From Fundidesulfovibrio terrae (GTDB lineage Bacteria > Desulfobacterota > Desulfovibrionia > Desulfovibrionales > Desulfovibrionaceae): 64,000 nucleotides of DNA. Below, piece after piece: positions 26,097-27,177 of this stretch (positions are counted from its first letter, which is position 1; each line of letters opens with the position of its first letter). The notes below the pieces were generated by a model. That model did not search any database. It saw nothing but the letters and a program-made list of their open reading frames with translations, and had not been told where the DNA came from. The stretch spans positions 1 through 64,000 of the forward strand of contig NZ_JAKZFS010000001.1 of assembly GCF_022808915.1 (NCBI RefSeq), given 5' to 3'. The translations under genes and the position numbers were made by a program.

Positions 26097-26843
26097 CTAT
26101 CCCGGCTTCACCGCGGAAAAAAGCATTCCCACCGTCACCGGAGAGCTCTTGAACCCCGTCTCGCCGTGGCACTCCACCTGCGTGAACCCGGCCTTGGCGA
26201 TCATGTCCAGGAACACCGTTCCCGGTATGGCTCCCCCCTTTCAGGTGAACCAGGAGGCCACCATGTCCTCCCTGGACAAGGGCGGCGGGCCGGTGAGGAT
26301 CTGGTCCGCTATCTGGAGCCGCCCGCCGGGCTTGAGAACCCGGAAAGCCTCTGCCAGAGCCTTCTTCTTGTCGATCACAAGGTTGTAGACGCCGCTGGAC
26401 GTCACCAGGTCGAACGTGGCGTCCTCGAAGGGCAGCGTCTCGGCGTTGCCTTCCACGAACTCGGCGTTTGACGCGCCTGACGCCTGGGCGTTCTCACGGG
26501 CCTTGGCGAGCATGGCCTGGGAGCTTTCCAGGCCCACGGCCCGTCCGCCCGGCCCGGCTGCCCCGGCCGCGATGAGCGTATCCACGCCGCAGCCGCAGCC
26601 CACGTCCAGCACGTGGGCGCCCTTGCCCGGCAACCCCATGGCGAAGGGGTTGCCCACGCCGCAGAAGCACTCCCGTACGGGCTTGGGGAGATGTTCGTAC
26701 CACTCGCGGCGGTAGCCCAGCCCGGAAAGCCCCGACTCTCCGGTGGGATACTTGAACTGTCCGGGCGCTCCGGCCGCGACCTTCTCGTATTTGTCACGCA
26801 GGCTGGCCTCGATCTGCACGCGTTGCTCGTTGGTGATTTCCAT
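26097..26843 (-). CDS. Probable selenocysteine-containing SAM methyltransferase, ArsM-like
   Basis: The frame runs 248 residues from ATG 26843 to TAG 26097-26099, with one in-frame TGA at codon 201 (26241-26243). Before it lie the SAM-binding motif ([11 protein letters not shown], 78-88), Cys59/Cys61 (ECFCGVGNP) and [20 protein letters not shown], all as in arsenite methyltransferases. After the TGA the same frame continues [19 protein letters not shown] and a conserved end. The TGA falls where ArsM-type proteins have a conserved Cys (WxxCxxGA). A hairpin with GGU loop lies 15 bases downstream. UGA read as selenocysteine is therefore likely; a nonsense mutation is the alternative. The substrate could be arsenite or another metalloid. 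Confidence 0.78.
26207..26225 (-). promoter_or_regulatory. SECIS-like hairpin after in-frame TGA
   Basis: On the minus strand CCGGGAAC-GGT-GTTCCTGG gives an 8-bp stem (one G-U pair) with loop GGU, starting 16 bases after the TGA. Bacterial SECIS elements are hairpins just after UGA with GU or GGU in the apical loop, bound by SelB. Position and loop both fit. Confidence 0.7.
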
Positions 26844-26970: not shown

Positions 26971-27177
26971 ATGAGCATCGATTCGGCCATTGCCTACATG
27001 ACGCGCATGCGAGACGACGCCGAGTTCCGACGCAAGGTCAACGAGTGCGACGATCCGGCCGCCAACTGGGCCTACCTGCGGGAAAACGGCTTCGACTTCA
27101 GCGTGGACGAGTTCAAGCTGGCCCAGAAGCAGGTCTACGAGGTCCACGGCACGGACCAGCTGCCCTACGCCGAGTAA
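26971..27177 (+). CDS. Nif11-like small protein
   Basis: The protein has 68 residues; GAGGAGG lies upstream of ATG 26971. The pattern [20 protein letters not shown]...[11 protein letters not shown] is that of the Nif11 domain, seen in a nitrogen-fixation-linked protein and as leader region in some RiPP precursors. It ends in an acidic tail without a glycine pair or cysteine-rich core. No RiPP-modifying gene is beside it, so it is probably a stand-alone Nif11 protein of unknown role. The spacer to the divergent methyltransferase is 127 bases. Confidence 0.75.

What the first reader, a model, noticed from the sequence alone, without database searches (positions are those of the whole stretch)
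26097..26843. Selenocysteine-type methyltransferase: in-frame UGA at the conserved ArsM cysteine with a SECIS-like hairpin
The minus-strand methyltransferase reads through a TGA at codon 201 (26241-26243) and continues in the same frame for 47 residues of family-like sequence. The TGA falls where ArsM-type proteins carry a conserved cysteine. Fifteen bases later CCGGGAAC-GGT-GTTCCTGG forms an 8-bp stem with a GGU loop, the layout SelB recognises. An automatic annotation would call it a truncated 200-aa protein or a pseudogene. A selenolate at a metalloid-binding position suggests altered arsenic or other metalloid chemistry.
Basis: partly seen in the sequence, partly recalled or inferred. Interest (0 to 1): 0.85.

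Follow-up and report, generated by a model that had tools for sequence, protein, structure and literature searches.

The report
Selenocysteine methyltransferase related to ArsM
A sulfate-reducing bacterium very probably reads a stop codon in this gene as selenocysteine, giving a full-length methyl-transferring enzyme related to arsenic methylases but lacking two of their three arsenic-holding cysteines, so its true substrate is an open question.

Summary
TGA 26241-26243 interrupts a 248-codon minus-strand methyltransferase gene. The same TGA is kept in all 6 congeners searched and in 79 of the 80 best related loci (the other has a Gly codon); none of the 80 has Cys. The genome encodes SelA, SelB, tRNA-Sec (anticodon UCA) and a SelD with its own in-frame TGA. 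Sequence after the TGA is under purifying selection, and the hairpin shows compensatory changes and matched synonymous codons.

The column equals Cys224 of the ArsM from Cyanidioschyzon. The other two arsenic ligands are gone (Cys72 is Val, Cys174 is Gly). In a 60-row tree the 26 canonical ArsMs keep both, with Cys or Sec at 224; the window's clade of 34 has neither where readable, and Sec in 33. Arsenite methylation by the known mechanism is therefore unlikely; a single-selenolate acceptor site is the better guess.

It is not new in kind: Sec-containing ArsMs are catalogued, and three fused relatives have NCBIfam models whose cut-offs this stand-alone form does not reach. Twelve stand-alone relatives have tso selenoprotein genes within 8 kb; this genome has none over cut-off. 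New variant of a known kind; substrate unknown.

The parts
26097..26843 (-). Selenoprotein methyltransferase gene: 248 codons with TGA read as Sec at codon 201, stop TAG 26097-26099
   Evidence: translation; NCBIfam and Pfam methyltransferase matches; AlphaFold2 model with mean pLDDT 96.4, Sec modelled as Cys
26241..26243 (-). In-frame TGA, the Sec codon; column of ArsM Cys224
   Evidence: TGA kept in 6 of 6 congeners searched and in 79 of 80 related loci
26207..26225 (-). SECIS-like hairpin: 8-bp stem with loop GGU (loop 26215-26217), 15 nt after the TGA
   Evidence: sequence; 97.5% of 672 cells paired and 31 double-changed cells against a shuffled mean of 5.2, over 84 distinct rows; synonymous-codon match
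26661..26663 (-). Codon of Cys61, two residues before the ArsM Cys72 position; candidate partner of Sec201
   Evidence: Cys in 79 of 80 rows (but one of the two locus search patterns contained this Cys); Cys in 27 of 33 readable rows of the Sec clade
26655..26657 (-). Codon of Val63, the position of the arsenic ligand Cys72 in ArsM
26391..26393 (-). Codon of Gly151, the position of the arsenic ligand Cys174 in ArsM
   Evidence: Gly in 79 of 80 rows, Ala in one

Best explanation
The gene encodes a single-domain, single-selenocysteine, SAM-dependent methyltransferase of a clade that stands apart from, but is closest in fold to, the canonical arsenite methyltransferases. Shown by sequence: the UGA is a conserved sense codon, followed by a conserved hairpin, in a genome with all four bacterial Sec genes. 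Inferred: SelB reads the UGA as Sec with the help of the hairpin. Inferred: Sec201 lies in the acceptor pocket where ArsM Cys224 holds arsenic, and its selenolate holds or activates one soft acceptor (a metalloid, a chalcogen or an organometal species already carrying other ligands) while SAM gives the methyl group. Because the Cys72 and Cys174 equivalents are absent, inorganic arsenite held by three thiolates is probably not the substrate. The selenoprotein part I hold at about 0.97, loss of the arsenite site at about 0.75, and the single-selenolate acceptor mechanism at about 0.4.
For: Sec genes in the same genome: SelB 360.5 bits over its cut-off of 242.25, SelA 608.8 over 267.9, tRNA-Sec 79.4 over 47 with anticodon tca by ARAGORN, SelD 337.2 over 125 with one in-frame TGA. 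The TGA is kept in 6 of 6 congeners searched at 59-75% identity, each with the same Nif11 gene and glnS beside it. Of the best 80 of 207 loci found by patterns that do not cover the site, 79 have TGA there, one has a Gly codon and none has Cys. The top 38 matches in 348 genomes of the class and the top 25 in 395 genomes of the phylum each contain one in-frame TGA, although Sec was sent to the searches as Cys. After the TGA pN is below pS in all 5 congeners compared. Hairpin covariation. Tree and ligand columns. Fold: CmArsM 4fr0 ranks first, Z 25.1, rmsd 2.3 over 205 residues, and Foldseek's five best are ArsMs. The own genome also has a canonical ArsM with Cys at all three positions, scoring 340.6 against the cut-off of 263; the window protein scores 161.9.
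Against: No experiment shows Sec in the protein. An 8-bp stem of this kind follows 3.3% of the window's TGAs by chance, and 13 of 84 distinct rows do not pair at the position next to the loop. Cys61, kept in most members, could stand in for one lost ligand, and in rat AS3MT the equivalent of Cys72 is reported to be dispensable (abstract of PMC3877260), so arsenic binding is not excluded. The fold lead of ArsM is modest: other methyltransferases follow from Z 21.4 down, and several further CmArsM entries score only 19.2-19.6. The substrate is inferred from missing residues only; the genome has no TsoB or TsoR over cut-off, so neighbours give no clue here.
Confidence: 0.85

Rival explanations
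1. It is an ordinary arsenite methyltransferase whose arsenic ligand Cys224 is replaced by Sec, methylating arsenite with higher efficiency.
For: First-ranked fold is ArsM; Sec-containing ArsMs that keep both other ligands exist (6 rows: L035, L037, L039, L180, L181, L184); NCBIfam calls two of the three fused relatives arsenite methyltransferase selenoproteins. Cys61 lies two residues from the Cys72 position, and the Cys72 equivalent is reported dispensable in rat AS3MT.
Against: Cys174 equivalents are absent in all 34 rows of the clade and Cys72 equivalents in the 33 readable ones; both are present in all 26 canonical rows. In CmArsM C174A is inactive on arsenite and methylarsenite, and C72A on arsenite (PMC3877260, passages). 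The protein fails the PRK11873 cut-off, 161.9 against 263, and the organism already has a canonical ArsM.
Confidence: 0.17
2. The TGA is a true stop: the product is a 200-aa truncated protein, or the gene is a pseudogene or carries a sequencing error.
For: The 200-aa part holds the SAM-binding domain. One congener's draft genome (L022, the same contig as L052) leaves the frame just after the TGA.
Against: TGA and the following reading frame are kept in loci whose record titles span Deltaproteobacteria, Synergistota, Nitrospirae and Nitrospinota; pN is below pS downstream in 5 of 5 congeners compared; the tail raises the NF041537 score from 240.1 to 309.5 bits; all four sel genes are present.
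Confidence: 0.02
3. UGA is read through by another route (near-cognate or suppressor tRNA, giving Trp, Cys or Arg) rather than by SelB as Sec.
For: No biochemical evidence identifies the residue.
Against: tRNA-Sec with anticodon tca, SelA, SelB and SelD are all present; the hairpin meets the published bSECIS limits seen and covaries; the column is Cys or Sec in the canonical ArsM rows.
Confidence: 0.02
4. The enzyme is a redox-controlled methyltransferase: Sec201 and Cys61 form a selenenylsulfide that gates activity, and Sec does not touch the substrate.
For: Cys61 is Cys in 79 of 80 rows. Some relatives lie near DsbD/thioredoxin-like TsoB and ArsR-type TsoR, and L101 lies beside a HUIPC-type thioredoxin-like ORF that is below its cut-off (57.4 against 105).
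Against: One of the two search patterns contained this Cys, so 79 of 80 is biased; 6 of 33 readable rows of the clade in the tree lack it, including all four rows of one deep branch. No distance could be measured on the model.
Confidence: 0.15

Closest known systems
NCBIfam NF041537, NF041536 and NF047649 (methyltransferase fused to AhpD, DUF2284 or UXPK-star selenoprotein domains; credited to Haft and Tolstoy 2025 in PMC13188914; that paper was not held)
   Same: Residues 2-247, 2-247 and 2-246 match the methyltransferase part of the three models without a break, with Sec in the same UxxG motif (motif as listed).
   Different: No second domain and one Sec only; scores 309.5, 290.4 and 272.8 bits against cut-offs of 510, 575 and 460.
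Sec-containing arsenite methyltransferase, PRK11873/NF008823 (listed in PMC2398784 of 2008 and in PMC13188914, which credits Fomenko 2007)
   Same: Sec with motif UxxG, which fits the Cys224 column; same fold.
   Different: The six found here keep Cys72 and Cys174 and form one subclade among the canonical ArsMs; the window's clade keeps neither.
Cyanidioschyzon ArsM (PDB 4fr0, 6cx6) and Chlamydomonas ArsM (5evj)
   Same: First three solved folds, Z 25.1, 24.4 and 23.6.
   Different: Cys72, Cys174 and Cys224 are Val63, Gly151 and Sec201 here; the longer C-terminal part of those enzymes is absent.
tso selenoprotein loci (TsoR, TsoA, TsoB and TsoC models of NCBIfam)
   Same: 12 stand-alone relatives have a TsoR-, TsoA- or TsoB-like gene within 8 kb; members over cut-off were scanned and confirmed from L094, L105 and L107 and L061.
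   Different: The window's genome has no TsoB or TsoR over cut-off, and its gene lies beside Nif11 and glnS.

Membership tests
Bacterial selenoprotein | In-frame UGA conserved in homologs | tested here: met
   6 of 6 congeners searched; 79 of 80 loci, one of them (L052) frameshifted right after; one Gly codon (L122)
Bacterial selenoprotein | bSECIS: loop of 3-9 nt with G in its first two bases, stem of 4-16 bp, 16-37 nt from the UGA (limits read in PMC13188914) | tested here: met
   loop GGU, 8 bp, 23 nt; covariation
Bacterial selenoprotein | SelA, SelB, SelC and SelD in the genome | tested here: met
Bacterial selenoprotein | Cys homologs aligned with the UGA | tested here: met
   only through canonical ArsMs: 20 of 26 canonical rows have Cys there, 6 Sec; none of the 34 rows of the window's clade has Cys
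Bacterial selenoprotein | Selenium shown in the protein | not testable with these tools
   needs 75Se labelling or mass spectrometry
Canonical arsenite methyltransferase (PRK11873/NF008823) | Curated score cut-off of 263 bits | tested here: not met
   161.9 bits; the genome's own ArsM scores 340.6
Canonical arsenite methyltransferase (PRK11873/NF008823) | Arsenic ligands Cys72, Cys174 and Cys224 | tested here: not met
   Val63, Gly151 and Sec201
Canonical arsenite methyltransferase (PRK11873/NF008823) | Class I SAM methyltransferase fold of ArsM type | tested here: met
   4fr0 first, Z 25.1, rmsd 2.3, 205 residues
Seleno-methyltransferases NF041537/NF041536/NF047649 | Methyltransferase part with UxxG | tested here: met
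   profile positions 4-249 of each model matched; motif UKGG
Seleno-methyltransferases NF041537/NF041536/NF047649 | Second, Sec-containing C-terminal domain, and curated cut-off | tested here: not met
   frame ends at TAG right after the methyltransferase part; scores below cut-off

The most novel reading that the evidence does not exclude
A widespread lineage of methyltransferases has become Sec-dependent: its selenolate is the only conserved soft ligand left of the ArsM arsenic site, no Cys form was found, and it methylates something other than arsenite (for example a chalcogen or organometal species), so the current name 'arsenite methyltransferase' for its fused members is wrong.
Probability: 0.4. 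Interest if true: 0.75.

Novelty: new variant of a known kind. Interest (0 to 1): 0.5.

Why it matters
The stand-alone form of this seleno-methyltransferase reaches the cut-off of none of the 25 best NCBIfam models shown for it and, with UGA read as a stop, would be cut at residue 200. The two lost arsenic ligands give a concrete reason to doubt the arsenite label on its named fused relatives. If the substrate were found, it would be a rare case of a methyltransferase in which selenium has become indispensable.

Tried and rejected
Hairpin by itself as evidence: rejected, 3.3% of TGAs in the window match as well, and Rfam shows only two tRNAs in the window at gathering threshold. Sequencing error or pseudogene: rejected. 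A Cys version inside the clade: not found in the rows that were looked at; the only departure is a Gly codon in L122. The position of the TGA was read only where sequence was fetched; for the other rows the table gives just the number of stops. A tso locus in this genome: nothing over cut-off (best 140 bits against 805, and 49.4 against 115). A hidden second domain after the TAG: none seen. Distance from Cys61 to Sec201 in the model: coordinates were not in the Python box. Neighbourhood clustering also returned shadow frames; I used only clusters checked by family scans. Haft and Tolstoy 2025 could not be read, so I cannot say whether it mentions the stand-alone form or the missing ligands; the listings and the passages read in PMC13188914, PMC9312934, PMC2398784 and PMC12013277 showed neither point. 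What I saw of papers: PMC13188914, section 7 parts 1 and 3, reference list parts 2 and 3, and passages; PMC9312934, PMC2398784, PMC12013277 and PMC3877260, passages only; Fomenko 2007 and Haft and Tolstoy 2025, reference entries only.

Limits and rows dropped. The 80 loci are the best 80 of 207, so they lean towards the stand-alone query. L052 was left out of the column statistics; L052 and L122 out of the hairpin and protein alignments; L022 out of A1. A3 has 76 rows: 69 of 78 eligible loci, the window and 6 relatives. The tree has 60 rows chosen by hand: 19 of the 80 loci, 20 fetched stretches, 14 ArsM-like loci, 5 close relatives, the window and the own ArsM. Its root is a midpoint, its bootstrap had not settled, and L186 is a partial match (model positions 67-247), so its columns 61 and 63 were not counted. 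Sec was replaced by Cys in all alignments and in the fold.

Full report
What is there. On the minus strand, 26843..26097 reads 200 codons, a TGA (26241-26243), 47 codons and a TAG. Fifteen bases after the TGA an 8-bp stem with loop GGU begins (26207-26225). Read through, the protein is a class I SAM-dependent methyltransferase. With Cys for Sec it models at mean pLDDT 96.4. The first-ranked solved structure is the arsenite methyltransferase of Cyanidioschyzon (4fr0, Z 25.1, rmsd 2.3 over 205 residues); other methyltransferases follow from Z 21.4, and some further entries of the same ArsM score only 19.2-19.6. The host genus is Fundidesulfovibrio: congener G001 contig C44 has the length and gene position of NZ_JAKZKX010000005.1, F. 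agrisoli SG106.

Can the genome make Sec? It has the genes. SelB 360.5 bits, SelA 608.8 and SelD 337.2 pass their cut-offs, and the SelD frame holds one TGA. tRNA-Sec scores 79.4, and ARAGORN names it SeC with anticodon tca. The tRNA-Sec model is not specific by its cut-off alone: a second stretch of this genome over it is tRNA-Ser. In 10 of 10 genomes of the family, the window's and 6 congeners among them, the best match is over the cut-off, but anticodons were read only in the window's genome.

Is the TGA a sense codon? The matching gene in 6 of 6 congeners searched has it, beside the same Nif11-domain gene and glnS in each; one of the six, G006, leaves the frame right after it. Of the best 80 of 207 loci found by patterns outside the site, 79 have TGA in that column (one, L052, is the G006 gene); L122 has a Gly codon. 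In whole genomes the top 38 matches among 348 genomes (E up to 1e-66) and the top 25 among 395 genomes (E up to 3.2e-80) each contain one TGA; a few matches, the window's own among them, are in both lists. No Cys form turned up, although Sec was sent to the searches as Cys. After the TGA pN is below pS in the 5 congeners compared (0.11-0.22 against 0.33-0.62), much as before it in the 4 where both sides were computed (0.18-0.29 against 0.47-0.66).

Is the hairpin real? By itself it is weak: 56 of 1,672 TGAs in the window do as well. Across 84 distinct sequences 97.5% of 672 cells pair, against a mean of 92.3% in shuffles; 31 cells show changes on both sides, against 5.2, and none of 500 shuffles reached either value. 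Slid by one column the structure still pairs 73.5% (14 double-changed cells) or 59.4% (6). Most double changes (21) are in the pair next to the loop, which occurs as A-U, C-G, G-C and U-A; 13 rows do not pair there. A test that leaves the amino acid alone: where column 26 is A, a following Asp codon is GAT in 34 of 34; where it is G, GAC in 7 of 8 (Fisher p 3e-7; over the whole of the same genes GAT:GAC is 276:209 and 35:72). The rows are related, so the p-value is a guide only. Loop, stem and distance fit the published bacterial SECIS limits.

What kind of methyltransferase? The Sec column is Cys224 of CmArsM; the equivalents of Cys72 and Cys174 are Val63 and Gly151. A tree of 60 hand-chosen rows splits in two with 99/95 support: 26 canonical ArsMs, all with both cysteines and either Cys (20) or Sec (6, one subclade) at 224; and 34 rows including the window, with Gly (32) or Ala (2) at 174, no Cys at 72 in the 33 readable rows, Sec in 33 and Gly in one at 224. 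The root is a midpoint and the bootstrap had not settled, so I speak of a split, not of an order of events. Sec thus occurs at this site in two settings: in ArsMs with an intact arsenic site, and in a clade where it is the only one of the three ligand positions that keeps a soft residue. Published work on CmArsM reports that all three cysteines are needed for arsenite and two for methylarsenite; for rat AS3MT the Cys72 equivalent is reported dispensable (PMC3877260, passages). The window protein is therefore unlikely to methylate arsenite in the known way. Cys61, two residues before the Cys72 position, is common but not universal (27 of 33 readable rows), and its 79 of 80 is biased because a search pattern contained it.

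Where does it belong? It matches the methyltransferase part of three NCBIfam selenoprotein models without a break but reaches none of their cut-offs, as it has no second domain; of 61 families matched, the best 25 were shown and it reaches the cut-off of none of those. It also fails canonical ArsM (161.9 against 263), while the genome's own ArsM passes (340.6). Among the 80 loci my motif-based sorting gave 55 stand-alone, 9 with DUF2284, 9 with UXPK-star and 7 with AhpD. The 55 include the frameshifted L052, L129 cut by its contig end, and L120 and L125 with long unclassified tails; and the best 80 lean towards a stand-alone query. 21 of 80 loci have TsoR-, TsoA- or TsoB-like genes within 8 kb at 40% identity or more (12 of them stand-alone; 15 of the 52 loci with at least 5 kb upstream). 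Members over cut-off were confirmed from L094, L105 and L107 and L061. The window's genome has no TsoB or TsoR over cut-off.

Known or new? The 2026 review lists arsenite methyltransferase with motif UxxG under experimentally verified selenoproteins, crediting Fomenko 2007, and the three fused forms, crediting Haft and Tolstoy 2025; the 2008 marine survey lists Sec-containing arsenite methyltransferases. So the kind is known. What I did not see in print is the stand-alone form as a family of its own and the loss of the two arsenic ligands; the key 2025 paper could not be read, so this is not a claim that they are undescribed.

Verdict. Very probably a real selenoprotein (about 0.97). How it works is inferred: Sec201 as sole conserved soft ligand for a non-arsenite acceptor (about 0.4), a redox gate with Cys61 (0.15), or arsenite after all (0.17).

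Noticed in passing
L182 and L183 (genomes G634, G653): Canonical Cys-type ArsMs with an in-frame TGA at the N-terminal cysteine pair (CUPSK, where relatives have a Cys pair): a different candidate Sec position in ArsM.
   Followed up: no
L167, L168, L170, L171: A deep branch of the Sec clade with FHFHTG or FHFHIG-like sequence (FHFHRG in L167) instead of FxYPTG near the N-terminus, Sec at the same column and no Cys at the positions of Cys61, Cys72 or Cys174.
   Followed up: partly
L122, Sec column: The one relative with Gly (GGA, one base from TGA) at the Sec column; it is a DUF2284 fusion whose second TGA is kept.
   Followed up: no
window 26971-27177 (+): Small Nif11-domain protein (50.4 bits) between the selenoprotein gene and glnS, kept in that place in the 6 congeners searched.
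   Followed up: partly
L155:2815-3609 (own genome C1, about 1404.8-1405.6 kb): The genome's canonical ArsM; an ORF that looks like a sigma-factor gene overlaps its end and runs on downstream (judged by eye, not scanned).
   Followed up: partly
L048 / G000:C1:1243285-1244208: The SelD frame holds one in-frame TGA, so SelD is probably itself a selenoprotein; the position of the TGA was not examined.
   Followed up: partly
L190 / G000:C1:1465139-1465585: Weak TsoB/rhodanese-like match (37.8 bits) with one in-frame TGA in the own genome, a possible further selenoprotein.
   Followed up: no
L105:7199-7894: VTT-domain membrane protein between the tso genes and the stand-alone seleno-methyltransferase; by clustering such genes lie within 7 kb in 9 loci, by the stricter search in 5.
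   Followed up: partly
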